From assembly GCA_039566865.1 (NCBI GenBank), contig CM076959.1, positions 1,657,501 through 1,721,500 of the forward strand: a stretch of 64,000 bases of DNA, read 5' to 3'. Under the pieces are notes generated by a model. It saw only the letters and a program-made list of their open reading frames with translations. It did no database searches and was not told the origin of the DNA. Below are positions 11,900 through 62,939 of the stretch, one piece after another (the first letter of the stretch is position 1; every line of letters begins with the position of its first letter). Position numbers and translations under genes: made by a program. Source of the stretch: Aurelia coerulea. Lineage: Eukaryota > Cnidaria > Scyphozoa > Semaeostomeae > Ulmaridae.

Positions 11900-13102
11900 A
11901 AAAGAATCAGCATGCGTTTCGTAAGCTACACTCAACAATCACATCTCTAGTAAAGAGTACTGATGAATGGCATAATAACATTGATTCTCAAAAGGTCAAT
12001 ATGGCGATGTTTTTGGATTTAAAAAAGGCCTTCGATACGGTGGATCACAAAATACTGCTCGAAAAACTTTCTAGGTATGGCGTGCAGGGTAAGGTGATTA
12101 GCTGGTTTCGATCCTACCTCACTGAACGAAAACAGTTTTGCAGAATCAATGGTAAATGTTCTATGTCTTTGGGGGTAACCTGTGGCATTCCCCAGGGTTC
12201 CTGTCTAGGCCCCCTTCTCTTCATCATATACCTTAACGACTTTGAAGAATGTTTAGTTTTCTTCGGCGAGCATGTATGCTGATGATACGCACACAACGAT
12301 AGCCTCTGAAGATATTAACGAACTTGCCGAGATGATGCAGGAAGAGCTACAGAACATTTCTGAGTGGATGAGGGTCAATAAATTAAGTGCCAATCCAAAA
12401 AAGACTGAGTTTATGCTTATCGGCCATCCACGTAGAATTAACAAAATTGAACCTCTGGCTCCATTGAAACTTAATGGCACAGAAATAAAACGAGTGACAA
12501 AAACTAAATCACTAGGGGTTATTGTCGACGAGAATCTAAGTTGGAAGGAACACTTCAAATCCTTGAAAGGTAAAGTAGCAAGTGGTTTGTCTGCACTGAA
12601 AAAACTTAAAAACGTTCTTCCGCAATCTAAGCTATGCGAGGTTTACCATGCGCTGGTTGAAAGTCACCTCCGATATGGGAATGTCATCTGGGGTAGCCTG
12701 CCCAACACGAAGCTGCAACCGCTTCAGCGTCTACAGAACAGGGCCTTCTCCATTATTCAAAATGCTAGAATAAAGGACCCCTGGATCAATAATGGGCTGA
12801 ACGTTGATCAAATCATCTATTTTGACAGATCTATCATGACACACAAAATAGTCAACAAGCAGTGCCCTGAGAGCCTCTGGAACAAGTATAGTCAGAGGAA
12901 TGAAATTTCTAGGTATAACACAAGAAACAATAGAAATCTCGACATCCCAAAGTTTAAACTTGAGTGTACAAAAAAAATTTTCCACCTTTCCGGGCTTAAA
13001 GCTTGGAATGAAATACCAATCGAAATAAGGGAAATCCCCTCGCTCTATCAGTTTAAAAGAAAATTGAAAACGCATTTAAAGAGCTCAGTAAACCCTAACT
13101 AA
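11893..13102 (+). pseudogene. CR1/jockey-like LINE reverse transcriptase, frameshifted
   Basis: The first frame (to 12282) carries RT motif A (LDLKKAFDTVDHKIL) and motif B (GIPQGSCLGPLLF). A one-base frameshift between about 12250 and 12270 moves the reading to a second frame starting MYADDTHTTI, where YADD is the catalytic motif C, and continues to the family C-terminus (LKAWNEIPIEIREIP, FKRKLKTHLKSS). All catalytic motifs survive but lie in two frames. The upstream part of ORF2 is missing. A 3' UTR of about 160 bp and a poly-A run follow. Confidence 0.85.
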
Positions 13103-16138: not shown

Positions 16139-18720
16139 CTAAGTTTCGTAATCTACCAGATCAAAACGCTTGGACGATCTAATGTACTTTATTGTAGCTT
16201 CAAGAATCATTCTGTTGATGATATACGAAAATTCAACACTTCCATACAATAGGAGTGAACAAAAGGTATCATCCTCAAGGTTGGCAATATCTAGGTTCAG
16301 AAATTCTGAGAGTTCGCCATGGAGATTCATACGAGAGTTGTTAAACAAAGGGCAGTGCAGGAGGAAATGCTTGTTATCCTCATTTGCTGTACCGCAATTG
16401 CAAAGTGGACTTACGACGTTAAATCTGTGCCTAAACCTGTGCTCATTTAGTGCACTGAACTTCAAGCGCAGTTTTGTTAAGATTCTAATACCCTCAATAT
16501 CATATATGTTGTAAACACAGTTTTCAGTTGGACGTATCTTGGAGAGCAGTTTTCGCTTGAATTCGGCAATAGACTTGGAGCACCTGGTATCGCTATCCAG
16601 TAAATTCCATTCAAAAGGCGCATTACTAAAATATGTATTGGAAAAACGCACAGTCTTGTCAATAAAGGGAGAATACATCCTCTGATTTCTAAGATTATAG
16701 CTGGTTTGTCGCTCAGCAGGGATTTCATTGAAGAGATATTCTGGGACGTGTTTATTTTTCAGATTGAAAAAATGACATAAACGACGGTACCATCTTCTAC
16801 TATGAAGGGTTTCCCATCCCAACTCATTGTAAAGCCTTTGCCTATTTGTACCTCTCCACACACCAGAGGCAGCCTGGGCTGCAGAATACTGGGTTTGTTC
16901 CAATTTTTGTGTAAAACCTTGCCGCATTTCTGGGTCATATCTATGATACAATAAATCACCATAGTCAAGGTGAGGCCTCACATATAATTTATAAGATAGA
17001 TTAAGAGCATTTCTGGAGACATACTTCGAAAGATATCGTATCAGACCAATACTTCGTCTCGCCTTTAGGATGGCTGCTCTGATATGACTTTGAAAATTTA
17101 ACTTTGAGTCCAATATCATTCCTAAATGCTTGTGTTAATTTTCCCGTTTGATTTCGTCATTGCCTAATGTTAAAGGCGGGTGGACAATTCTAGCTCTTTT
17201 GGTGGAAAATATGACTTCCTCCGTTTTATCTGCATTAAATTGCATTTTCCACTGCTAAGCCCAGATACGTATTTTTTCTAGATCTCGATTCAATTCTTCA
17301 GCGCCAACGATTTCGTTTTCAATTACTGAAAACAAGGAAGTATCATCTGCAAAGAGTTTTGACCTCGGAATTCAAGTTATCACAGAGATCATTTATATAC
17401 ACCAGAAAAAATAAAGGACCCAGCACAGACCCTTGGGGTACACCTGCGAGAACATCCTGCCACTCTGAAGTCTTTCCATTCAAAACAACCCTTTGTTTCC
17501 GATCTTTTAAAAAGCTGCTAATAAGTGCGAGCATATTACCAGATACTCCGTTATATCTGAGCTTATGAATGAGTCCTTCATGCCACATCCTATCAAAAGC
17601 CTTAGATAAGTCAAGAAATACTGCACGTGTTTCTTTACTTGGCACATCATCAAAAGCACAATAGATCTTATGGGCTATGAATAGCAACTGATTTATGGTT
17701 GAGTCTCCAGGCCGAAAACCTGATTGGTTAGTCGTTAATAACTGATTTGCGCACAAATGATCGTAGATTACATCAAAAAGCTGTTTCTCAAACAATTTCG
17801 AAAAAATAGGAAGCAAAGAAATTGGACGATAGTTATTTTTGCATTGCCGACTCCCCTTTTTATGAATTGGAACAACATTTGCTTTCTTCCAAGAAGAAGG
17901 GTAGATTCCAGTCTCTATGCACCTCTCAAAGATCATACATAAAGGTTCAATGATTGCATTATCACATAATTTAATCATAGCAACAGAAACGTCATCACAC
18001 CCATGGGATTTGCTGGAATCCAAAGCTCGAATGGGGTTTAGCACCCTTTCCCTATTGACATTGAAATGCTGTAGAGTTGGGACAGAACTTGCTGCGAAAC
18101 TGGGTAGCCTACTCGATGTTCCTACTGAGCAACACTGTGCGACGAAGTAGTCATTCAACACATTCACTTTTGTTTCAAAGTTCACCACGAAAAGCCCATT
18201 TTCGAGTAACGAAGGAATATTGGGGTGTTTTTTGTTACCATTTAGCCTTTTTAGTGAGGACCAAAATGTTTTAGTACCTGTATTAGGGTCCGAGAGTTTT
18301 CTGCCTAATTTTCGATAGTAATTTTCTTTGGCATCAGCAACCAATTTTGACGTTGACTTACGAACTGCTTTTACGTTCTCCCAGTCCTCTTCCCTTCTAC
18401 CTTTTTGCACAAATTTCTTATAAACTTTTTCGCTTTATTGCACTTTTTACTTCATGGGATATCCAAGGCGGGTCTTTATCATTACACTGGATCACCTTAT
18501 TGGGTATGTTTTCTTTGAACGTGGACTTCAATATACTATAAAATCTTTCCACCATTTCGTTACATCCCAAATTATGGAAGCAATTTCGCCAATCAATACT
18601 TCGTAAAGTGTTTCTGATATTCGAAACATCAGCTTTGGGGTATTCCCAAACTGTCCTTCTATATGGGGGAGGAAGGGGGCTGGTTATTTCGCAAGATATT
18701 TCGCAACGAGAAAACTTGTG
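16139..18720 (-). pseudogene. Jockey/I-like LINE ORF2, minus strand, 5'-truncated
   Basis: Reading from 18720 down, the frame begins after the endonuclease (PPPYRRTVWEYPKADV). It shifts frame near 18415 in an A-run, then runs through the RT fingers (NYRPISLLPIFSKLFEK), motif A (VFLDLSKAFDRMWHEGL) and motif B (GVPQGSVLGPLFFLVY). A one-base shift near 17350 separates these from motif C (KLFADDTSLFS), and two in-frame stops follow (about 17256 and 17137). The remainder (16139-17119) ends with a C-terminal cysteine/histidine cluster (CNCGTANEDNKHFLLHC) of the type found in jockey/I/R1-clade LINEs. It is the same family as 58287-61557. Not functional. Confidence 0.9.
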
Positions 18721-19375: not shown

Positions 19376-19689
19376 CCAGACAGAGAAGGCCTAGTCTATT
19401 CTGGCCTATGCGATTATGTAGCAGTTTTGACAACCAAAAGCAAACATCAGCAATAACTTGTGGTAAATGTAAAGATCTAAAAGGTAAAGATTTAAATTCA
19501 AGCCAAACTGCCTCCTTTCAAATAAGACGTGGAAACAACCACTAAGAACCCGAAGATCATCATCATCATCATCTTACTTCTTTATTAGGTACGATGTACC
19601 CTTACAGTGTCTTTACTAAAATATTTTACCAAGTAGAGACATAAACTCAGTGTTAGTTTGCATTTTCCCAGTTGAGGGTGTAGAAGGGG

Positions 19690-19800
19690 TTATGACTAGC
19701 TGACTAACAGGCTGTTTTGCCTATTGACTAATGACTAATTTGTTGTAAAACCTAAGACTAATGACTAACCATGTTTGTTCAGTTGACTGATGACTAAAGC
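19690..19800 (+). repeat. Left subterminal TGACTAA repeats of the transposon
   Basis: Within 110 bp the word TGACTAA or a one-base variant (TGACTAG, AGACTAA, TGACTGA) occurs about nine times, often as the double unit TGACTAATGACTAA. Such clusters next to the termini are usual as transposase-binding sites; that function is an inference. Confidence 0.8.
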
Positions 19801-20003
19801 GAATTATTCCGACTGCCTGAAGAAAGTTAAGTTTAATTTGTTGAAAATTCACACTGTGCTCTTCCATTTGTGGCGTGTTATGTTATTTTTCTTCTAACCC
19901 TACTACATGACCTCTGCGGGGTTGTTATTCAGCAAACAGCCTCAATCTGGGGACAGAGCTTGGACTCCAGTAGGAGGCTATGCGTGGAATGTTAAATCTG
20001 AAA

Positions 20004-21025
20004 ATGGCGGCAGTGACCGTAGAAGGGTTCTGTACCACAGCTCGGTTTGTGATAAAATATGGAGAAGTTTCAAGCCCAGTGAGCTTCCGAATCCAAATTG
20101 ACAAAGAGCATAACAATCTGAATTCTATGATCCGCCATGTGAGAGATGAGCTGCAAGATGAGCTGAAGCAGAAGAACCTCAAATTTTATAACTTATCACT
20201 GTACCTCCATAGACGAAAGTCTGAAGTGATGGGGAAGAAGATAAAAGAGGAGTTTTACAAAGTATTATCGGAACAAACATGGCAGACATACTTGGAAGAT
20301 CTGAAAAAGTCAACCATAAGGGAGGACGATTTGTATGAGCTGTATCTTGAAATTGAGCCAACTGACTTCTTCGTCTGCAAAAACAAGCTGTTTGGGGCAA
20401 CTGATTCTGGAGAAAAACAGGGTAGGCCTAGTGGAAGTGGGATTCATATGGCAAAGGGTTCTAAAGCAACAGATAAATCCAGAATTGTCCAGGCCATATT
20501 ACGACAAGACAACCCCAATGAAATCAACAATCTGAGAACAGAAGACCAAAAAAAGCAGCTAAAAGAAAAGCAGACGCAATTTGCTGAGATGTTTGATATA
20601 GCTGAACTAGTCAACAAAAAGAGGGAGGAATCTGGTGTTGCTCCGCTATCATTGGGAGAAAAGGAGAAGATCAAGTCTCCAACCTTACTCAATGAGCTTG
20701 AAGTTTTATGCATTTGTGGTGAGAAGAAGAAATTAAACAGCTGGCTGAACATATCCCATTTTGGTAGTGAGTTGTGCCATTACAGGAGATGCAAATTTTT
20801 GAAAAATTTGATTAACATGCACTGCCAGAAAGATGATGCAATTATACACTGTGGGAGACCTGAAGATCATGTAAATATTGAAGCTGTATCAGCAGGGAAG
20901 AAGCGCAAATCAAAGGCTTCTGCTGAAACAAATGTGATGCCTAAAGCAAAGAAGACTGAAACATTGCCAATGAAGAACATTAAGCTGTGGGCAAGGCCCA
21001 TTATAAAAGATACAGCACCTAAAAA
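20004..21025 (+). CDS. Transposon gene, exon 1: N-terminal zinc-binding region
   Basis: The exon encodes 340 residues. An in-frame ATG lies 24 bases upstream (19980), but 20004 has the better context (A at -3, G at +4), so I chose it. The protein starts MAAVTVEGFCTTARF. It is highly charged and helical in the middle (about 30-215), and residues about 236-285 hold a Cys/His cluster (LCICGEKKKLNSWL, SELCHYRRC, NMHCQKDD, IIHCG) that looks like a zinc-binding or DNA-binding module. A basic tail (KKRKSK, PKAKK) follows, probably a nuclear signal. A stop codon directly overlaps a splice donor (AAAAA|GTAAGC). If unspliced the product ends here as a 341-residue protein; if spliced it continues in frame into the exon at 22149. 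I do not recognise the family. Confidence 0.75.
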
Positions 21026-22148
21026 GTAAGCCTTACGGAAAGGAACCATGTACTAAATTTTGCTGTTTCATTTAGGGTATGCTGGGGGTAAAGCAGGTAG
21101 GCTGGTATGGTAGTTCTAGTGGTTGTAGCTAGAGGAAAACTATGAAAAAAGATGTTATCAAAAATTTCAAATTGTTTTCCTGCGGACCCATTTATCCCAA
21201 CATTATACCCATTTTACCCCAGTAGACCCATGCTTGTTCAGTTTATTCCACTTCTCTTTGTTGACAGCTACTCATAAGACATACATCCATGATAGGGTCA
21301 CAAGGTTTATTTTTGTTGTGGGCTGAGATAAAATCTCATTGACACCTGATGAAGATCAAAGCTCAAAATTTTGTTATTTATAACTTTCTGAGTACGTTGT
21401 CATTTTTTTAAGAATTACTGGAGATAAAATCAGTCAGAATGGAGGAACATGGCACTTTTTAGTATCGTTAGTTCCAACCATGGCATTTTTGCAAAAATCA
21501 TTTGTTTCCCTCCTGTTCTAAGATATTGATCATGCAATATTCCACCAAGCTGCAAGTTTCATCAGAATTTGTTCATATGTGCCCTCCAAAATATGGAGCT
21601 TTAGAAAGGAGGGTTTTGCTGAAGAGATGATGAACCGTCTCTGCAAAGGATTAATAAAAGTTTCATATTTCATTCTTATTACCTGTAAAGGACATGCATG
21701 TATGAATTTTTATATCTTGAAGTGACTGTGCAGATCTTATTGTATGTTTCGGGTATTTTTTGATAATGTTCAATAATCATAGTTGATTATTAATATCAAC
21801 TGGTGTTGCTTAGTTAGAACTAATCTGAATTACAGAGCTGTTGTTTTACATGAAAAAAGTAATCTGGAATTTGTAGAAAGTCTCATTTTGATTATGTCTA
21901 CCAATTCATGTGCATGTATTTATTTAGTAATATGAGAAATTTCCATATTCTAAAATTTTCCCAAAGACTGATGTTTTGATAGCTTGAAGATGAGAATGCT
22001 GCTGCAATATTATCACAATCATCACCTTGCTTTTGGCAAAATGTTTTTGGGGGAAAGTGCTTTGCCAGTTATCCTTAGAAATTTAAGAAAAAAACTATTT
22101 AGTTGTAAAAAAATGCAAAACTCTTTATTTTATTGGTCTTCCTTGTAG
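21026..22148 (+). other. Putative intron of the transposon gene
   Basis: It is 1,123 bp, starts GTAAGC, ends in a pyrimidine-rich tract and CCTTGTAG, and is AT-rich with no long open frame. Removal joins codon AA|A and then ATG, keeping the frame. It could instead be a spacer between two separate genes, because the second frame also begins with an ATG exactly at the junction. Confidence 0.65.
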
Positions 22149-25100
22149 AATGGATTCAGACAGTGAAAGTGAGTCAGTTAGTTCAACAGAGGAGAATATT
22201 ATTAGTGAGGCAAGTATAAGTGAGTCTGATCTGTCTGACTCTGATGATGACAATATTGAACGCGATGGTTTTTTCAAGTATGACCCTGAAGATGAGGTTG
22301 ATGATGAAATGTTGGTGCAAATGTACCCTTTTTTCCCAGAACCTATTTTCCAAATGAGGCAATTAGATGAACTTGCATTACTTGTTCAAGAGAATGTTGA
22401 AAATGGTTGGCCTAGAGATCATATCATGTATCAAACATTCAAATGGGGACTACAGTATGCCCTTTCTTATGCCAAAGGTACCATACCAGAAACTCCTCCG
22501 ATATTAAAGTCTTTCTTTGAAAGTATGTACTTTCATGCAAATCAGAAGACAATGAATTTAATCAGAGGACATGGTGACATAGGCACAAGGAAGCTAAACT
22601 GTAAAGCAACATTTGATTGGAAGAACTTTAACATAATCATTCCAAGCTTGAAAACCATCCAGAAGAACCTACCACCAACCTTGAAGGATCAGGGTGTACT
22701 GAAATTTCAATTAAATAATGCCCTTAACCTGGCTAAGGAACGTTCTGTACCTTTTTACAATGACTCTAGAGCTACTGTATTTCTCCAGTGCATCGTAAAT
22801 GATGATATGGCAATCAAACCATCGGGCCAGATAGACAAAGATGAAGTCTTTGGCACAACACAGAAAATCGATGTTGCATTTACGAGAGAGAACCCTGTTT
22901 TAAAGCCAGACGCAATAAAAAATATGATGTACACATCAGTTGGTGCTGTCTTCACAAGTTCAGCTGACGGCTCTATCACTCTGTTTACAGAGCACCGTTT
23001 CAATACGAATAGTAAGACAGCAAATGACGTATTGCAAGAAACGAAGGAGTTGCAGCAAAATCTTGATGTTTGCCAGCAATGCCTGTTGAACTGTTCCGGT
23101 GGGAAGGAGAATTCAACTGTAATCAATGAACGGCCAGTTTGTTGTGAAGTTGAGTTTTGCAAAGACTGCCATGTTCGGATGAAAGGGGATATCTACACTT
23201 CATGTGATATGTGTGAAGAGAAAGGGTATGATAATTCCTTGTTGTTAACCAGACCCTGCAACTGCTGCCTAAAGAAAGACGAGAAGTGTGTGAAATTTTC
23301 TCATCTGCTTTGGTCGTGTGATGGTTTGTCTATCCAAGCAACTGCCTTCACTGCATTAGACAGAGATAATGATAGCCCTGACACGACAAATATGCTCCTT
23401 CCAATCAGTGAAATGGTACATATGGGAAAAAAGCTGTTGAGGTCTGTCTCAAACTGGTGGCTTGTTTTGAACGGTTACAGAATAAATGCAATGATGATTC
23501 GTGCCATACGACATTCAACAGATAAGGCAGCATCAGCAAAGGTCCACTCCTTGATTTCTGACCTTGCTCTAAGAGGTAGGGATCGAATGGATTTCTCTCA
23601 CGTCTTGGAGTACTGCAGCCAACCTCTGTTAGGATTTCTAAACGAAGCTGGATTAACCACGACATCGATACATCCTGATCCATTCTGGCCCCTAAAAGAC
23701 GCCATTGATATCAAAGAAACATTGGATATGTGCACTGGTCCCTACGGCAGTCTCCTCGTACTTGGAGACGGAAAGTTAGTTAACATAAGGCTGCACCATC
23801 CTGTCGAGACCAAGGTCCTTTGTGAATTGCCAGCAGCAAATTCAATAACATATACCAATGGAGTTGTCTTTGCTTGTCAAAAAGGTGATATCATCTTTGT
23901 CGATGTTACTGGTAAAACAGCTGTCAATCTACACTCTATGAGAAAAGCAAAGCTTTGTGATTTAGCAAAGGAGGAAGATCTGATTCCAAAATCCACTGCA
24001 GAAAAGGAATACACATGCAAGCAATTAAGAGACATGCTCAACGCAAAACTTTTTCAAGGTAAAGAAACATCTTCCAGCAGACGAAGAAAACAAATTTTGA
24101 CACCAAATTTGGCTTCTGTACAAAAGGAGATCAATTTGAGAAAGCCAGTTTGTATAAATTCTTTCGAAAGTGGCATTCTTCTCTGTGACAAGGAGGCTAG
24201 CAAGCTTATGGTATTTGCTATCGAGATCAAGCCAAGACAAGTACAACTCAAGCTGACACAGTCGTTTGATTTTCCACATTGTAACCACAGCGTACTTCCA
24301 GTGTCGGTTTCTTGCATCACAGATGAGAACACAGCTCAGATCAGGAAAGTATTTGTGTCCGATGGACACCAAGACGGCGGAGTCTATGGATTCGATATTG
24401 AAAGCGGTACTTGGACCACTCTTATCAGAAACAGAGAGGACTGTGGGACAATTCATGGAATTTGCACACAGGAAAATCATTTGCTTATGGCAGACCGAAA
24501 AAGGAATCAAATCCTCAAATACGACTTCGCTGCCAAACAGCTGGAAAAATTTGGGGATGGCAAATGTTCCACCTCAGACGGCCCTTTGAGCAGCTGCTCC
24601 TTCGCGCAGCCGACAGCTGTATGTGCTGAAGGCAGCACGATATTTGTTGTGGATAGAGCTACTAACACTGTTCGACTCATATCATCAGTGAGTGCTCTAT
24701 CAAAATATCTGTCAGTTCTCCATGCTATCTGCCAATCCTTTGGAATTCATTGCAAACAATTGGGATTCGCAAAAGCACTTCCTCTTCCAGAAGTAATCAC
24801 CAGAATGGCTGACTCACTCAAAGTTCTGGATGAAATGATCGACTTGGCAAGGAAAGTTATGAGCAAGCCGATGCTAAGCCCCGAAGGACCAGAGGGAACA
24901 CCAGCAAAGGCCACAATAGATCAGCTGAGACTTTCAATTCGAAGCCTCAGAAAGCTGTCAGAGGTGATCAAAGCAATGAATCCAGATTTTGCAGTTTCAG
25001 TTGATATGCAAAGCATGCTTACGCTCGTAGTGGAGCATCACTTTTCAGTCGCAAGAAGTAGATATCCAATGCCCACGCCCCTGCAATACTGTCAAATGAT

Positions 25101-25968
25101 TCTTGCAGTCGTGAAGGAAAGCCTGAAAAAATTGACAGCTGTTGGTTTCTCTTATTTTCTCTCACAAAAGTCATTTTATCCAGTCCCAACCAGCAGTGTG
25201 AAATTTGAAAGCCTCACATTTCCAAGAAAGCAGAAAGAAAAAGGCTTTATCAAAATTTCTCCACAAGAAAAGAGAGAGCTGCGTAACTGGTGGCTGCATA
25301 ACCTAAAGGGAGTTGCCCAAAAAACGCCAAGGCAGCGTTCCGAGAAAGATAACCCTGGAACTTTACCAATTGCTGCTTATGCAAAGGAACCACCATCCAT
25401 TTCAATGCCTGTGCCAGAGGAGGTGCTTTTACCTAATTTCGATGAGAACGACAACAACACAGCTCATATGCAAGAGGACCAAGATCCAATATCTGCTACT
25501 ACTACTACCAGAAGAACTGCAAGATCAAAACAGGGAAGAAAAGAGCAACCAGGGCACAATTTGAATGGAAAATACGTTACAACTTCCAGGACGGGGCAGA
25601 TAGGGAAAGTTCTAAAAGTCTACTCTGATGATAGCACCGATAGTGCTCTTCTAAAGATCTTTGAAACTACGATTGATGACCCAAGGGTACTAACATACAT
25701 AGGAGATTTAATCAATCCAGTGACTGATATTGATGTCATAAACTTTCAAATTGATGAAGGAGATGAAGAGATTCGTTTGAGCGAAGAGAACTATTCCGAG
25801 TTTATCACTGCTTGTACTGGAGCCAAGAGAGATCTAGATGATGTAAATGCAGGAGAATTATCTTCAGATGGCGAAAAGAGTGACGATGAGCTGGTATTTT
25901 TCCCAACTACAACAAGGAGAGGGAGAAGAATCGTACATCCATTTGCTTCCCACTCTGAATGGTTGTAA
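22149..25968 (+). CDS. Transposon gene, exon 2: large Cys-cluster / NHL-like protein
   Basis: The frame is 1,272 codons from the ATG at 22150 with no interruption. By residue: 1-55 is an acidic Ser/Asp/Glu tract. About 160-190 contains the segment WKNFNIIIPSLKTIQKNLPP. Residues 308-390 form a cysteine-rich cluster of roughly 16 Cys (CQQCLLNC, CCEVEFCKDCH, SCDMCEEKG, CNCCLKKDEKC). Residues 530-845 look like beta-propeller blades, the clearest being an NHL-type repeat at 766-845 (HLLMADRKRNQILKY, GDGKCSTSDGPLSSCSFAQP, IFVVDRATNTVRLI). Residues 958-990 (LTLVVEHHFSVARSRYPMP) resemble the segment around the last catalytic Glu in some RNase H-like transposases (E962). The tail is acidic with a basic RRGRRIVHPF end. 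Being the only gene in the transposon, it is the candidate transposase, but I cannot identify a full DDE triad. Confidence 0.85.
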
Positions 25969-26212
25969 CTGGACAAAATGTTTGATGTGCTGGCTATTGG
26001 GTATGTTGTCTCTCTTGAATGATAGTGCTTGTTTCTTTGGCTACCGAATATCCTTTAATAGCGTAATCTGTTGTAGGCATGGTATAGAATAACACTTTTT
26101 GGAAGTTCTGTGACAAGCTGTTTATATTGCAGTTCTCCAAAGAAAATCATTAGCATACTGTTTGTTTACATGTGAAATGTTAAAACCAAGAATTGTGTAC
26201 TGAAAGGAAATT

Positions 26213-26282
26213 TTGACTAACTGAAGCCAGAAATCTTGACTAGTGACTAACTGGGCCCATTATTGCTTGACTAATGACTAAC
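26213..26282 (+). repeat. Right subterminal TGACTAA repeats of the transposon
   Basis: Five copies or variants (TTGACTAACTG, TTGACTAGTGACTAACTG, TTGACTAATGACTAAC) lie just inside the right end, in the same strand orientation as those at the left end rather than mirrored. Confidence 0.8.
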
Positions 26283-26362
26283 AATACCCCCCCTTCTACA
26301 CCCTCCCAGTTGTTGTTTGCAAGAAAACGAGATCAGCACCATCTCCAAATAGTGGGGAGATC

Positions 26363-26442
<80 letters not shown>

Positions 26443-26466
26443 TAATAAAAATAATAATAATAATAA
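26363..26466 (+). repeat. (AAT)n microsatellite
   Basis: About 33 AAT/ATA triplets with a few A substitutions at the right end. On the minus strand it follows a LINE 3' end (26745-27206) and may be that element's tail. The open frame of isoleucines through it is an artefact. Confidence 0.9.
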
Positions 26467-28849: not shown

Positions 28850-29275
28850 CCTCGGGGGGGGGGGGGGGGGGGGCGGGGGTGGTACTTGACTAGGTTTTGG
28901 TCGGGACATGCCATCAAAGCGTCAAAACATACCCGTTCCTTAAACCAATTTTTCGAAAATGTAAACCCGACCTTATACCAATTTTCCAAAAAAGTATACC
29001 CGACCTTATACCAATTTTCTGAAAAATCATACCAAAAATCGTCCCTTGTACCAAAATCGCGAAAATCGATACCGTTGGGGGGCACTACATATATTTTGGG
29101 TACCGGGACGTACCATCGGGAAGGGTATCAATTTTCAAGATTTTGGTGTAAGGTATAAGGTTTGGTATACTTTTTCAGAAAATTGGTATAAGGTCAGGTA
29201 TACATTTCCGGAAAATTGGTATAAGGAACAGGTATGGTTGGGTGCCATGCAGCAGTTTGGGTCCGGTTGGCCCTG
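28850..29275. repeat. Inverted-repeat element built of 'aattggtataaggt' units
   Basis: It starts with a run of G and 'ggtggtacttgactaggttt' and contains three copies of 'accttataccaattttc' on the left half and three of 'gaaaattggtataaggt' on the right half, so it folds into a hairpin. Truncated relatives are at 5930-6005. Overlapping frames on both strands are by-products of the repeat. Confidence 0.65.
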
Positions 29276-45642: not shown

Positions 45643-46454
45643 ATGCTGATTGCAATCATTCATTTGATGCATGGTTGTTTTGATCTGGATTATTGTATCA
45701 CGTGAGTTATTAGATAAAAGTCAGATAATTGATAAGTTAATTTCTTGAGAAACCTATCGTTATAGGATAACAATATGTACATCAATGATATGACTAAGTG
45801 TTACTCACTGACCTATTTTTATCATATGCTTTGGGGATATTGTCTGAGGAGGAATGCTTTTTGCTTTATTTGTTTTTTAGATTGTTATTTATTAAGTCAT
45901 GAATCGCAGCTATTTTTGTGTCTCTTGCAACTACACTGGATGATTCCAAAAAATCCTTGGCTTTTATTTATTTTCTATATACATCTATTTTCAATTTATT
46001 AATCTAAGCAACGTAATTTCTTGTAAACATACTCATGCAGAAGTTTACAATAATCAATTTCCAAATCCCCAAATCATGCTGAAAACGTTTTCTCTTTGTC
46101 CATTCATCTTGAGTCTTTAGAAAATTTGATCAACGTTTCTTGATCGTTTTCAGTGTTTTCGAAAACGAAAATTTTAAAAAACTCGCTTGTAGCTCTAAAA
46201 ACTGAAAACGGAAAAAATTGTAAAAATTCCTAGAATCAAATTCAGGCTTTCTGCTAAAGATTAAGCCATAAATCTCCAAAAGCGGTTCAGTGTACGATTT
46301 ATCGTGGCCTGCCAAAAGTGCATAGTTTATTTTGGCGCACCCGGTATGTCATCACCTGTGAAGCGTTTTTTTTTTCTCCTACCCAGTATGGGATTCAAGC
46401 TATTAAGATTTCTTATTTCTTGATGAAGTAACCAAATCTTTGTTTCTTTTTCAG
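45643..46454. other. Satellite edge and orphan mariner-like end
   Basis: Positions 45690-45870 still resemble a satellite unit ('tatcgttataggataacaat', 'tatcatatgctttggggata') but are far more diverged, as expected at an array edge. At 46332-46344 'ttttggcgcacccgg' followed by TA looks like one mariner-type end; its partner is not apparent. No gene before the acceptor at 46454. Confidence 0.5.
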
Positions 46455-47679
46455 CGATCACAATCCCTGTTATGGTGAAAAACCAGCATGGTAACAGAAT
46501 TTACGACAAAGGGCATGTGTGTTATTACTGTAATACTCAGTGTTTGAAGATTTCTCGACATCTCCTAACTGTTCATAAATCGGAAACTGAAGTGATGAAA
46601 GTCTTGGCTATCGATACCAGCACTAACGACAACCGTAAAAGGCGTGCAAAAGAACTGGATCGTCTCAGGTACAGGGGGGACTTCTATCATAATCTAAAAG
46701 TATTGAAAACTGGAGGAGAATTGAAGGTGTTCAGAAGACCAGGTCCTGGAGAAAATGTTGATGCCTCTATGTTTACCCCTTGTACACACTGCTTAGCTTT
46801 TATAAGGAAGCATGATCTGTGGCGTCACGTAAAGCAGTGTACCTTCAATGAAGAAAGAACCGACGATGATGACAAGGAAAAACGATGGCACATGAAGCTG
46901 CAGTATGAAAGTGAATTGCTTCTGTTTTCTAACAGATTTCCAGAGGGATCCAGTGAAGCTCTTGGATCACAAGTTCTCAGCACAATGCGGTCAGATGAGA
47001 TCACTCAGACTGTAAAGTCGGACAAGCTCATTCTTATAGTCAGAAGCTCTTTGCTAGAAAGAGGGGGCTCCACAAAGATATCATATATTTCTCAGAGATT
47101 GCGTACGCTTGCTAGGCTCCTCCTAAAGGTTCGAGAAAATGAGGATAGCAATTCAACAGTTTAATTTCTGATGGACTGCATTGCCCCAAGCATGTTTGAT
47201 ATCGTAATTAAAGCAACAAAATCTCTTTGTGGGTATTCTCAGTGCACCACCGAGGCTGGCACTTTCTTTTCAAAACCAGGTCTTGCCTTGAATGTTGGTT
47301 ATGATCTGCGTAAAGCTGCCCTCTTGCTTCGAGGTCAAGCCATTAAGTTGCAAGATAAAGATTTGCTGGAAAGTGTCAATGGATTCACCCAACTGTACGA
47401 ACTTGAATGGAAAATATTAATCTCATCTGCAGCTGGAATTGCAACTGTGTCACAAATCGTTGATATGAACAGTTCAGAACTGGATTGGCTTGCTAGACAC
47501 CTTGGGCATGACATTGCAGTGCACAGAGACTATTATCGACTCCACGAGCACACAATCGAGCTTTCTAAAGTCAGCCGCCTTTTGCTTGCAATGGATGAAG
47601 GGAATGCAGCAAAATGGGCCGGCAAAAAGCTCGACGATAGAGCAATAGAGGGTATGTTAAACATTAATGCATCTTTATG

Positions 47680-57445: not shown

Positions 57446-58286
57446 TTTCATAATTTAAGACCTTAACCCAAATTGTTTGCCCAAGTCACAAACCTATTTT
57501 GCTTGAGAGTTGTTTAAAAATAAAATTCTACCATATCAGAAAATCACTAGCGGAAGATATATTTTCCTTTTTTATGATTGGCAAGGTCTGTGGGAAGCTC
57601 TGGATTGCGAGTGGGACTTGTGTATCGTGCATCGGGTCTTCCTTGGTTCTTTCGTTTCTGGCGTGCCGGGATGTCGGGTGGCGGCTTCGGTCCTCATGTG
57701 TGGCAGATCTGCCATACTTGGGGCCTGGGGGTGGTGCTTGGGGTCTCGGTGTGTCGGAGGGGTTGGGTTGATAGCTCCCGAAATGATGACAATAATCATG
57801 GATCTGACGACGTCTACAGACAATTAACTTTAGGCTTTCAATTTTGGAAAAACGACACTGGAAATCTGCAAAAACTTTCTTTCTCTGTTGAAAATAGTTT
57901 TATTAGTCTCATAGGTTTTTACCGTAGAATTACATGCTTCATGAGCATTCCGACTTTTATTAGAATAATGCCACTTTGAAATCCCACCAGCAAACCCAAC
58001 ACAATGACCGAATATACCAAAGTTTCTTTTTGTGTATTGCTGTCTGTTTTTGTTTTTAATGTTGTAACGATATTATTTTTCATTTGGTCTGATACACAAG
58101 TACAGGGGTCTTTAATCAAGAATGGCACATTTCTATTCATCCTTTGTTTCAGCATTTCAATGACATAAGCGATAGGTTTCCCAAATCGTGATGTAGTTTG
58201 ATATAAACCAGTGGCGCGCGGCAATTGGTTGTTTCCGTATCCACCTACACAGACGGGAAAAATTTCCATGCACATTCAGCTTTATA
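57446..58286 (+). other. Spacer between ORF1 and ORF2 of the inserted LINE
   Basis: It is 840 bp, partly G-rich on the plus strand (57590-57770). Several overlapping short frames in three phases, and a 118-codon minus-strand frame (57919-58275), show no recognisable motif. It is probably the untranslated inter-ORF region. Confidence 0.45.
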
Positions 58287-61200
58287 TTGATGACTTGGCA
58301 AATTGCTAGGCTTTACTGGTTCTGTTTCTTCTCCATTTGTATTTTCATATTTATCTTACCTTTCATAGTAAGTATCCATTTCTTCGCTGTTCATTCCATC
58401 TGCCCTCAGCTCAATCTACTTTCGCTTTTCTCATTGGTATATTCTTATACTAGGATAGTCCTATATGCAATTTTCGAACTTTCTAAAAGAGTTTCTTTTG
58501 CTTTTTATCATTCGTTTCGTTTGCAATATCGATCGGTGAGTTACTTTTTCTTAATCTACACTCAATGGTATGCTGTTTGTGAGTCAGTTCATTTGATTTA
58601 TACTCTATGGGTGATGCAAAGGATCATTTTACTAAGTGGGGACATCGAATTAAATCCAGGCCCGGAGACTCTGGACTTTTGCTGCTGGAATTTGAATAGT
58701 ATAACAGCATACGATTTTCTTCGAGTGTCTCTCATTGAGGCATACAATTCTGTATATGATTATGATCTGATAGGTGTTGTGGAAACTCACCTTGATAGTA
58801 GCATTGCCGTGGATAGGCTGGCACTGAATGGATATTCTTTCATCAAGCAGAATCATCCGCTAGATATTAAAAGGGGCAGTGTTGGGCTCTATATCAAGGA
58901 GACTCTTCCGAAATAAAAGTGCGCTCTGACATTGTCACGCTTCCCGAATGTGTTGTTTGCGAAATCCAAATCAACAGGAGGAAATATTTGTTTGCTATTA
59001 TCTACAGGAGTCCTAGCCAGAATCAAGAAGAATTTGATTGTTTTATGAATAATTTTGAGCTTATGTTATCAAAAATGGCTGCCCAAGATCCTTATGCAGT
59101 AATCATTTCAGGGGACTTCAACTGTCGCTCCTCTCAGTGGTGGGCGGATGACAATGAAAACGAAGAAGGAAAATGCTTCGAGCCTTTAACGTCTGACCTT
59201 GGTATTCATCAGCTGATTAATGAGCCAACCCATATGATTGGTGAATCTAAGTCGTGCATAGATCTAATTTTCACAGACCAACCAAACATTTTCATCGAAT
59301 CAGGTGTTCATCCATCACTCCATAAACGATGCCATCATCAAATTGTATATGGCAGATTGCCGATTAATAATCTTGCTCCGCCCCCTTTTACTCGCAGACT
59401 CTGGCACTATGACAGTGCCAATATTGATGCTATCAGAAGAAGCATCGAAATGTATCATTGGCGCGAATCTCTTCAATCCATCGAGTGCCCCAACCAACAA
59501 GTGAAGTTACTGACGGAAGTCGTTCTCAACGTGTGCTCTAATTTCATACCTAATGAAATTAAAACGATTAGACCGCGTCAAGCTCCATGGGTGACTAAGT
59601 CGATCAAAGCATTTCTTCGGAAAAAGAATCGTGCCTACAAATCTTTCGTTAGAAATGGCCGACCTGCAGATAAGTATCAAGAAATCCAAAATATGATCTC
59701 TCACAGTTCTAAAATTGTGGAAGATGCTAAGCAGAAATATTTCTCCAAGATCGGAATGACTCTTGCAAATCCTGCTACTGGTAGTAAAACCTACTGGTCT
59801 TTAATAATAAGGTCCTAAACAAAGTCAAAATTCCTGAAATACCTCCCCTCCTAGAAAATGATATTTTCGTTCTTGACTTCTCATCTAAAGCACAGATATT
59901 TAATGATTACTTCATCCTGCAATGTTCGACTTTGCATACAGGAAGTGAAATTCCAGGAGATCCACCAGAATACGGCACTCAGCTCACCAACGTCTCTATA
60001 ACAGACGAAAAAATATTGAGAATAATTCGATCGCTGAATCCTAACAAAGCTCATGGATGGGATGATATTTCTGTGCGAATGATCAAAGTTTGTGATAGCG
60101 CACTAGTATTGCCGTTGAAATTAATATTCGAGAATTGCTTATCCAAGGGTATCTTTCCTGAAACCTGGAAGTGCGCAAATGTTGTTCCTGTGCACAAAAA
60201 AATGAAAAGAACTTGAAAGAAAATTATCGACCAATCTCCCTTCTTCCAATCTTTTGGAAAATTCTGGAGAAATTGGTATTCGACTATATATATCAATGAT
60301 TTGTCTGAGGACCTGAAATGTACCGTAAAATTATTTGCTGATGATACTTCTCTCTTCACCACGGTAAAGGATCCTGTACTAGCAGCTGATGATATGAACC
60401 ATGATCTGAATCGGATAAAATTATGGGCACATAGATGGAGAATGTCCTTCAACCCTGATCCTAGAAAGCAAGCTGTAGAGATAATTTTCTCAACAAAGAG
60501 AGTCAAAATTGATCATCCCGCGATATTTTTCAACAATATGCAAGTAATGAAAGTGGATGAGCATAAACATATTGGCCTTACACTAGACTCAAGGCTTTCT
60601 TTTTCAAGTCATATAAACTCGGCTATTGCCAAATCGAGAAAAGCAATCGGAATGCTGAAGTTTCTTTCAAAGTATCTTCCTAGGGAGACCTTGAATGTAC
60701 TTTACAAACTTTATGTTAGACCCCACTTAGACTATGGTGATGTGATTTACCACATTCCATGCAAGGAGATCAGTCTCATTGGCCGTGGTAATATCCTGAT
60801 GCAAAAACTCGAATCGGTGCAATATTCTGCAGCATTAGCAGTACCAGGTACACGGAGAGGGACCTCACGTGAAAAGCTGTATCAAGAGCTAGGATGGGAA
60901 TCCCTGTACTCTAGAAGATGGAGCAGACGACTTTTTATGATCTACAAAATCATTAACAACCTGATGCCAGATTATACAAGAGATCCTATTCCACAACTAA
61001 ATCAGCCTAATTATGCTTTTCGCAATGAACCTGTTGTTGGTCAAATTAGGGCAAGAACTGAAAAATATAAGTCAAGCTTTTTCCCCAGTTTGCATGAATG
61101 GAGTAAACTTGACCCTGAAATCAGAGAATCTTCCTCCATCAGTATATTCAAGAACAGATTGCTCTCGCTTATTAGACCACCTTCTAACCCGGTTTTCGGT

Positions 61201-61557
61201 ATTTATGATCCACGAGGGCTTTCTTTATTAACTCAGCTTAGGTTAGGGTTGAGCAAACTGAATTTTCGCAAATTCAGACATAATTTTAGTGACACAATCA
61301 ACCCGATGTGTCCAATCAACGACGGTCCTGAGGATACGGAACACTACCTGTTGTTGTGCGCTTCTTTTGAAGAACAAAGGCGTGACCTCCTCGCTGGTGT
61401 CCTTCCGGTGCTGCACTCATTTGAAATTATTGACGTTCCAAATCCTGTCCTTTTACAGATTCTTTTGTACGGCGATAAAAAGTTGCCATTTGAAGTAAAT
61501 AACTTCATCTTAAAATCAACCATCTTGTATATTTCAAGAACGGAACGCTTCGTATAA
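58287..61557 (+). pseudogene. LINE ORF2: 2A-like motif, endonuclease, internally deleted RT
   Basis: The first frame (58287-58916) has a hydrophobic leader, the 2A-like motif at residues 118-126 and the endonuclease start (LDFCCWNLNSI, VVETHLDSS). A one-base shift near 58918 leads to the rest of the endonuclease (IIYRSPSQNQEEF, IISGDFNCRSS, SCIDLIFTD). Another shift near 59805 leads to the RT fingers (LNPNKAHGWDDISVRMIK, KCANVVPVHKK). At about 60285 the text jumps from NYRPISLLPIF and LEKLVFDY directly to YINDLSEDLK and LFADDTSLF, so motifs A and B are deleted while motif C remains. The 418-codon end (60301-61557) is intact, with LYVRPHLDYGDVIYH and a C-terminal Cys/His cluster (MCPINDGPEDTEHYLLLC). 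Same family as 16139-18720. Confidence 0.9.
58638..58664 (+). other. 2A-like ribosome-skipping motif
   Basis: The nine codons read GDIELNPGP, matching the 2A consensus D-(V/I)-E-x-N-P-G-P exactly. Such motifs are known upstream of the endonuclease in some APE-type LINEs, where they separate a leader from the ORF2 enzyme during translation. Here the leader (residues 1-117) is hydrophobic. Confidence 0.85.
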
Positions 61558-62939
61558 TATCATGGTCCTCTTCATTGAATATCCCTAAATCTTGTGCCCA
61601 ACGGCCTAACCTACTTATTTGTAATTAGAAAGTGTTGTAAAATTTAATCTGTATTATATTTATGTCCCCTTTAAAGTAAATGTTTTTTTTCTTTTTTGTA
61701 GTTACGTGTAGTTTTAGCAATTATTTCTCTCTCTATTAGTTACGTGCAGTGACATGTTCTTATTTCCTGTTTTATGTTGCCATGAGGTAGTCGTAGTTTT
61801 CGCTCCAATTGGTATTGTATTAGTAGTAGGGTATGGTATTTTGTAAGTAATGTTGAAAGTAATATGTATTGTAAGTTATTAAATGATGTATAAAAAAAAA
61901 ATCCAATCTATCTCAAGGAGACTTGGAAAACATCTCTGGGAGAGGGATTTACTGTAGGGGTATTATTCGTAGACTTCAAAAAAGCCTTTGACACAGTGGA
62001 TTATAATATTCTGGAAATGAGATTGCAAGCAAGTGGCTTTATGGTGACTTTAATCATCTTTTAATGAGCTACTTGACAGATAGAACCCAGTATGTTGAGA
62101 TAAACGGCAAAGAATCTTCGTTACGATCCATGCAAATATGGGTTCCACAAGGGTCACTTTTGGGACCTAGGTTATTTGCTTTATACGTAAATGATTTGTC
62201 AAGTATCGCAACTATAGGGCAAATCCATATGTGTGCAGATGATACAACAGCATTTGTGGTGTGCAAATCTGTTGATGAAGCAAAAAGTTGCCTTAACATT
62301 CTTGCAAGTGATATTCAACAATGGTGCAGAGCAAATAAGCTTACTATTCATAGTGGAAAAACAGAATTTCTAATCATGACACCAAGGCCGTTTCACGGTC
62401 CCATCAATAGAGTCAGCATGAACAGGGTCAATGTAAGATCAGCGACTGAGTCGAGATGCCTTGGTATAACGATAGACGATAGTCTCAGTTGGATTAAGCA
62501 AATTAACTTGGTTCAGAAATCGTTCTGCAGTAAACTGTCATTGATCCGAAGGATATCGTTTTTACCAGCTGATGTTCTGGAGAAGATTTACTACAAGACC
62601 GTTATACCAGCAGTGACATATGGGATGTTGTTATGGGCAACATGTCCCGAAAACAGGATAAATTGTCTCGAGGAGATCCATGCTAGAGCAGCTAGAAATA
62701 TTCATCGTATTCCAAGAGGGACAAATACGCAAGATTCATTAACCAAAGCAAACTGGAAACCCCTCAAATATTTGTACAATCAAAGACTTGCATCATTAAT
62801 TTTTAATGTATACAAGTGAACAAGTAAACAACACTGACCCTAGGTTACTGAATTTATTCAAACCATGCACAAATAGAAGATCAGCAAATAATTTTGAAGT
62901 AATAAGACCTAAGAAAGAGATAGACAGGGCGTAATTTAT

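What the first reader, a model, noticed from the sequence alone, without database searches (positions are those of the whole stretch)
19675..26304. Intact-looking 6.6-kb DNA transposon of unrecognised superfamily
Seen: perfect 15-bp inverted ends, an identical 8-bp flank on both sides, and two long uninterrupted plus-strand frames (341 and 1,272 codons). An 8-bp duplication is known from hAT, P, Merlin and Zisupton/KDZ elements, but the protein shows no THAP, BED or typical hAT dimerisation motif that I can see. Matching ends and open frames suggest recent activity, unlike every other element in the window. This is my best candidate for an undescribed system.
Basis: partly seen in the sequence, partly recalled or inferred. 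Interest (0 to 1): 0.9.

Follow-up and report, generated by a model that had tools for sequence, protein, structure and literature searches.

The report
Jumping gene with propeller-split transposase
This 6.6-kb stretch of an unnamed 574-million-base genome is a mobile DNA element with matching ends whose predicted cut-and-paste enzyme is likely a very distant cousin of the fruit-fly P element, but with a propeller-shaped (NHL) domain likely inserted into its cutting core, and relatives with the same ends carry 6-letter, not 8-letter, insertion footprints.

Summary
The element is real: window 19674-26305 (6,632 bp), 16-bp perfect inverted ends (GAGGGTGTAGAAGGGG), two long open frames. The 8-bp duplication is wrong: 28 of 33 complete copies in the same genome have an exact 6-bp duplication (CCAGTT here); the extra C and G come from the TIR ends plus a target preference. 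The two frames join in frame across a GT..AG intron, predicting one 1,613-residue protein. Divergent relatives (mostly 24-29% identity) share D218, D391, (D/E)xxH and E962, a Cys cluster, and an NHL beta-propeller-like stretch before the Glu (profile vs PDB, E 4.7e-9). The E962 segment aligns to Drosophila P transposase E531 (0 of 200 shuffles as good; Hermes no match); the second-Asp segment fits only in register. Best reading: autonomous DDE transposon, likely sister to P, in a lineage for which I found no description. It fails P tests (THAP, GTP domain, 8-bp duplication) and does not fit IS3EU, Dada, Zisupton or hAT by the features tested. AlphaFold failed (pLDDT 29 and 41), so the RNase H fold is inferred. 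Left ends and duplications of the divergent relatives, and splicing, are untested.

The parts
19668..19673 (.). left copy of 6-bp target duplication CCAGTT
19674..19689 (+). left 16-bp terminal inverted repeat GAGGGTGTAGAAGGGG
   Evidence: same terminus (up to 3 mismatches allowed) in 33 complete copies
19724..19797 (+). left subterminal direct repeats TTGACTAATGACTAA (3 copies); possible transposase binding sites (inferred)
   Evidence: family D1
20004..21025 (+). predicted exon 1 (341-codon frame), N-terminal part of transposase
   Evidence: donor AAAAA|GTAAGC
20709..20792 (+). CxCG...HYxxC zinc-finger-like motif (residues 236-263), likely DNA-binding
   Evidence: by eye; similar CxCG..LN...GHWxxC upstream of the ORF2-like frame in L053 and L055, there apparently split by an intron
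21026..22148 (+). predicted 1,123-bp intron GTAAGC...CTTCCTTGTAG joining the two frames in phase
   Evidence: no transcript data
22149..25968 (+). predicted exon 2 with stop (1,272-codon frame): catalytic part
   Evidence: relatives
22801..22803 (+). D218, proposed first catalytic Asp (NDDMAIKP)
23071..23289 (+). Cys cluster (residues 308-380) between first and second Asp
   Evidence: 9 Cys invariant in the 5 rows, 8 in the 5 rows
23320..23322 (+). D391, proposed second catalytic Asp; aligned with P transposase D303
23410..23421 (+). E421-x-x-H424, counterpart of the DxxH motif (D in the other lineages aligned, E here and in P0002)
23647..24699 (+). approximate insertion region, NHL beta-propeller-like (about residues 500-850)
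25033..25035 (+). E962, proposed catalytic Glu; aligned with P transposase E531
26236..26281 (+). right subterminal repeats TTGACTA(A/G)TGACTAA (2 copies)
26290..26305 (-). right 16-bp terminal inverted repeat
26306..26311 (.). right copy of 6-bp target duplication CCAGTT

Best explanation
Window 19674-26305 is a 6,632-bp DNA transposon with 16-bp inverted ends and a 6-bp target duplication whose two frames are predicted to be spliced into one 1,613-residue transposase that likely moves the element by cut-and-paste, using what is likely a P-element-like DDE active site split by an NHL beta-propeller. Proposed steps, all inferred except where a call is given: the CxCG..HYxxC finger binds the subterminal TTGACTAATGACTAA repeats; D218, D391 and E962 hold the metal ions that cut at the GAGGG ends; the propeller, sitting where P has its GTP-binding domain, contacts target or terminal DNA; the two strand joins lie 6 bp apart, at sites that prefer C-N6-G (seen in 28 copies). 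Non-autonomous copies sharing only about the last 124 and 103 bp (shown) are moved in trans by this enzyme or a close sibling.
For: Ends and duplication. Ends recur around unrelated interiors. In-frame GT..AG junction; a similar finger motif lies upstream of the ORF2-like frame in 2 relatives, L053 and L055, apparently split by an intron. Genome search with ORF2: 37 matches, the longest at 28-29% identity over residues 69-1108 and 119-1102; D391, H424, E962 and the Cys cluster kept in the aligned rows, D218 in the rows that cover it. NHL: profile of 5 sequences vs PDB, SUPPRESSOR OF QUENCHING 1 4.7e-9, Thin 3e-5, NHLRC2 3.6e-5; Pfam NHL in 3 of 5 members at E<=1, best 6.8e-4. P link: 10-row profile around E962 vs DmTNP score 37.3, 200 shuffles mean 14.3, max 22.8, reversed DmTNP 22.9, Hermes 13.0; without the window row 26.8 vs 100 shuffles max 23.6. 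Five of nine relatives have C-run..CCCTC downstream; for L053 that end is fixed from both sides, element copies stopping where copies of the host repeat start.
Against: Two AlphaFold runs gave no usable model (pLDDT 29.1; 40.8). The D218-to-DxxH profile scores no better against DmTNP than chance (21.1; 3 of 200 shuffles as good; reversed DmTNP 21.4); only its register fits. PDB search with that profile gives nothing, and with the E962 profile does not list P transposase. In this copy and P0002 the conserved D of DxxH is E. No transcript supports the intron. The non-autonomous ends are only about 85% identical to this copy's. The two longest relatives, L052 and L053, each hold a stop. Left ends and duplications of the divergent relatives were not read. 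L052 and L060 lack the CCCTC-type end; the end pattern was chosen after seeing the window, L053 and other ends, and its background is uneven: 2 hits in 115 kb of window strands, 53 in 386 kb of other fetched loci, so 0.1 to 1.0 expected in the 7.2 kb searched.
Confidence: 0.8

Rival explanations
1. It is simply a divergent member of the P superfamily in which the GTP-binding insertion was replaced by a propeller and the duplication shortened.
For: E-segment alignment to DmTNP; register of D391 and ExxH with D303 and D339; insertion at the same place, before the Glu.
Against: No THAP match; no TNP-like or GTP-domain Pfam match; 6-bp not 8-bp duplication (P has 8, PMC7776569 passages).
Confidence: 0.3
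2. It belongs to a described 6-bp or DxxH superfamily such as IS3EU/GingerRoot, Dada, hAT6, Kolobok or MuDR.
For: 6-bp duplications are reported for IS3EU and GingerRoot (PMC10045372), 6-7 bp for Dada (PMC3706591), 6 bp for hAT6 (title in a reference list, PMC12730594); DxxH occurs in hAT, Kolobok, P, MuDR and Dada.
Against: IS3EU ends TA..TA, here GAGGG..CCCTC; Dada has no TIR and sits in small-RNA genes; Hermes shows no similarity and no hAT or MuDR-type Pfam match was listed. Kolobok, MuDR and Dada proteins were not compared directly.
Confidence: 0.08
3. The two frames are passenger or host genes caught between transposon ends, the true transposase being elsewhere.
For: Non-autonomous copies share only ends; NHL domains are common in host proteins; no second close copy of the frames was found beyond fragments.
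Against: Five of nine divergent relatives of the same protein have a terminus-like sequence of the same form downstream, one of them (L053) a confirmed multicopy end; the three acids are kept across about 25% identity.
Confidence: 0.12

Closest known systems
P element transposase (Drosophila; PDB 6p5a)
   Same: Segment around E531 aligns to E962 with 36-38% identity over 42-44 columns; D303 and D339xxH in register with D391 and E421xxH424; an insertion before the Glu; short TIR with subterminal repeats
   Different: NHL-like propeller instead of helical GTP-binding insertion; CxCG..HYxxC finger instead of THAP; 6-bp instead of 8-bp duplication; Cys cluster between the two Asp
Dada superfamily
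   Same: DxxH class; 6-7-bp duplications; long protein with Cys motifs
   Different: Dada lacks TIRs and targets small-RNA genes
IS3EU / GingerRoot
   Same: 6-bp duplications
   Different: TA..TA (GingerRoot occasionally TG..CA) termini
Zisupton / KDZ
   Same: Large protein with Cys-rich parts (recalled)
   Different: 8-bp duplication; no KDZ Pfam match
NHL-repeat proteins (SOQ1, Thin, NHLRC2)
   Same: Propeller blades, profile E 4.7e-9 to 3.6e-5
   Different: Not transposases; here the blades interrupt the proposed DDE core

Membership tests
P superfamily | DDE core with DxxH and C-terminal Glu helix | tested here: inconclusive
   E segment above all shuffles; D391/ExxH segment in register only; fold not obtained
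P superfamily | N-terminal THAP domain | tested here: not met
   no THAP in Pfam scan of ORF1; single sequence, HMMER filters on
P superfamily | GTP-binding insertion domain | tested here: not met
   insertion matches NHL propellers instead; no TNP-like Pfam match
P superfamily | 8-bp target duplication | tested here: not met
   6 bp in 28 of 33 copies, 8 bp in none beyond the C/G extension
IS3EU/GingerRoot | TA..TA or TG..CA termini | tested here: not met
   GAGGG..CCCTC
Dada | no TIR, insertion in multicopy small-RNA genes | tested here: not met
   16-bp TIR; varied hexamer targets; flanks were not searched with Rfam
hAT (incl. hAT6) | hAT DDE core and C-terminal dimerisation region | tested here: not met
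   no hAT Pfam match; Hermes scores below its reversed control with both profiles
Zisupton/KDZ | 8-bp duplication and KDZ domain | tested here: not met
   6 bp; no KDZ match
Kolobok, MuDR | their DDE cores | not tested
   no direct protein comparison made; only Pfam scans
DDE cut-and-paste transposon (general) | TIR, fixed-length target duplication, three conserved acids | tested here: met
   10 rows; 5 rows; P0002 does not cover D218
DDE cut-and-paste transposon (general) | catalytic activity | not testable with these tools
   needs an excision assay

The most novel reading that the evidence does not exclude
A superfamily-level lineage of eukaryotic DDE transposons, sister to P, whose RNase H core is split by an NHL beta-propeller (with a SAP-like DNA-binding motif inside in at least one lineage) in place of the GTP-binding domain, marked by GAGGG..CCCTC ends, lineage-specific subterminal repeats and 6-bp duplications, and radiated into many lineages within one genome.
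Probability: 0.55. Interest if true: 0.75.

Novelty: new variant of a known kind. Interest (0 to 1): 0.66.

Why it matters
The insertion domain between the second acid and the Glu of DDE transposases differs between groups (GTP-binding in P, others in Hermes, Tn5 and RAG1; PMC7776569 passages). A propeller there would be a new solution, testable by one structure, and would help annotate NHL-containing 'uncharacterized' genes of such genomes as transposon-derived. The corrected 6-bp duplication with GAGGG ends gives a working signature for finding more.

Tried and rejected
AlphaFold2 on residues 60-1120 with one homologue (pLDDT 29.1) and on residues 505-860 alone (pLDDT 40.8, mostly strands): both too poor, so no fold search was run. 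Protein database: each gave P0001 (identical to the window protein, 3 member sequences, from read assemblies) and P0002 (85% identical, 956 aa); with the family profile a third, P0003 (only 7,995 candidates scored), 27% over 9% of the query and carrying NHL-type Pfam domains, taken as a propeller-only match. Genome contigs and viral contigs: no relative. PDB profile of the E segment: 25 matches up to E 10, best designed coiled coils (6.9e-4), judged compositional; D218-to-DxxH profile: none. The 8-bp duplication: rejected. L034's long minus-strand frames are a nested non-LTR element (by eye). A TIR-plus-duplication search inside seven relatives' loci found none, possibly because left ends lie outside the fetched stretches. 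Papers: listings of searches; passages of PMC10045372, PMC12730594, PMC8230255, PMC3706591, PMC7776569, and of the two that held my key words, PMC7351741 (propeller twist of DNA) and PMC4053983 (unrelated table entries). 'No description found' rests in this open-licence library only; Repbase was not available.
Full report
The observation. Window 19674-26305 carries a perfect 16-bp inverted repeat at its ends and plus-strand frames of 341 and 1,272 codons. The window lies in an unnamed 574-Mb assembly of 294 contigs.

The duplication. A DNA search with the left 3 kb gave 40 matches (40 of 296 candidates scored). I fetched the 39 that are not the window itself; 33 had both ends within the fetched stretch, and 28 of 33 show an exact 6-bp repeat directly outside the same 16-bp terminus; none of the 33 has an exact repeat of 4, 5 or 7-10 bp there, and 5 have no exact 6-bp repeat. 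In 8 of 28 the base before is C and the base after is G, so they too would look like 8 bp if the terminus were called 15 bp long; C (13/28) and G (14/28) there are a target preference. L020 and L021 share flanks and are one insertion counted twice.

Coding and non-coding copies. The complete copies fetched (0.6-4.2 kb) share with the window element only about 124 bp of the left and 103 bp of the right end, at roughly 82-88% identity. Among themselves, 108 pairs (18 copies) align over at least 90% of the longer one at 82.2-99.8% identity, 13 pairs at 97% or more. The only other long piece of the window element found is its first 982 bp at 93% (L012). With ORF2 as query no second close full-length copy appeared among the 36 of 69 candidates scored.

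One gene. ORF1 ends at CCTAAAAA|GTAAGC and ORF2 is preceded by TCTTCCTTGTAG|AATGG. Splicing 21025 to 22149 joins codon 341 (AA+A) in frame to the ATG at 22150, giving 1,613 residues. This is a prediction from sequence. In relatives L053 and L055 a similar finger (CxCG..LN....GHWxxC) lies upstream of the ORF2-like frame and appears interrupted by an intron (by eye).

Relatives. ORF2 gave 37 matches in the genome: the two longest at 28-29% identity (L052, L053, each with one stop), others at 24-29% (L057 with an open 1,156-codon frame; L058 in two open frames), plus short pieces up to 72%. The alignments (5 rows, 10 rows, 5 rows) keep D218 in [KN]Dx[MT]x[IL]KP in the rows that cover it, a Cys cluster (9 Cys invariant, 8), D391, H424 with D three residues before it in the other lineages (E in this copy and P0002), NW and DRxD motifs, and E962. 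This points to selection on the protein.

NHL insertion. The 5-row profile finds NHL propellers of known structure (7djl 4.7e-9; 6d69 3e-5; 6g7w 3.6e-5) at about window residues 758-836, and a designed propeller weakly (0.084) at about 518-582. Pfam NHL is listed for 3 of 5 members, best 6.8e-4; in the scan that shows bit scores the best is 19.7 against a cut-off of 20. L058 shows a SAP-like motif in the same region (6.9e-4, below its cut-off). So the stretch between ExxH and E962 is most likely a propeller.

Link to P. The 10-row profile around E962 aligns to Drosophila P transposase at its catalytic E531 (VVEHHFSVARSRY-PMPTPLQY / IVEHFFGSMRSRGGQFDHPTPLQF): score 37.3, no shuffle of 200 above 22.8, reversed sequence 22.9, Hermes 13.0. 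Without the window row it is 26.8, still above 100 shuffles (max 23.6). The D218-to-DxxH profile scores 21.1, which 3 of 200 shuffles and the reversed sequence (21.4) reach, but its best alignment puts D391 on D303 and E421xxH on D339xxH, residues named in PMC8230255 (passages). HMMER profiles of either segment against the PDB do not list P transposase. I read this as distant homology to P with one strong and one weak segment. The fold itself was not shown: both structure runs failed.

Termini of the wider family. Downstream of the frame, 5 of 9 relatives (5 of 7 with more than 600 bp available) have a C-run followed within 12 bases by CCCTC. The pattern was set after seeing these ends. Background is 2 hits in 115 kb of window strands and 53 in 386 kb of the other fetched loci, the latter possibly raised by unmasked variants of the element's own ends; 0.1 to 1.0 would be expected in the 7.2 kb searched. 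For L053 the end is independently fixed: 20 of 65 genome matches stop at query base 386-393 and ten matches of the flanking host repeat run from 387 to the end (40 of 116 candidates scored). Repeats of different sequence lie next to several of these ends (by eye). Left ends and duplications of these lineages could not be read.

What it is. A DDE-type transposon of a lineage likely related to P but failing three P features (THAP, GTP domain, 8-bp duplication), and not IS3EU, Dada, hAT or Zisupton by the features tested; Kolobok and MuDR proteins were not compared. In the open-licence papers searched (the two papers holding the key words looked at) I found no description of a propeller in a DNA transposase.

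Noticed in passing
window 46427-47164: 245-codon plus-strand frame with two CxxC..H zinc-finger-like motifs; not identified.
   Followed up: no
window 28924-29235: Two arrays of 33-bp tandem repeats in opposite orientation about 120 bp apart, next to a G-run; may be the repeats of another small element. It has no GAGGG..GGGG or CCCC..CCCTC end.
   Followed up: partly
window 12257-13102, 16139-18434, 58197-62819: Frames resembling non-LTR retrotransposon endonuclease/reverse transcriptase, in several pieces (by eye).
   Followed up: no
window 26363-26466: AAT microsatellite (about 35 copies) about 50 bp right of the insertion.
   Followed up: no
L049 (C23), L050 (C236), L035 (C1): Same flank TTCGACAGTG on three contigs; on C23 and C236 the two ends lie about 11.4 kb apart, on C1 2,045 bp: probably one locus also assembled as extra contigs with a further insertion.
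   Followed up: partly
L020 (C22), L021 (C5): 99.8% identical elements with identical flanks: likely a segmental duplication rather than two insertions.
   Followed up: partly
L053 right flank: The host sequence is a repeated unit spaced about 390 bp (matches at regular steps on C5, C9, C17 and C21).
   Followed up: no
P0001: A protein identical to ORF2 over all 1,272 residues is present in public read assemblies (3 member sequences), so the frame is not an assembly artefact of this genome.
   Followed up: no
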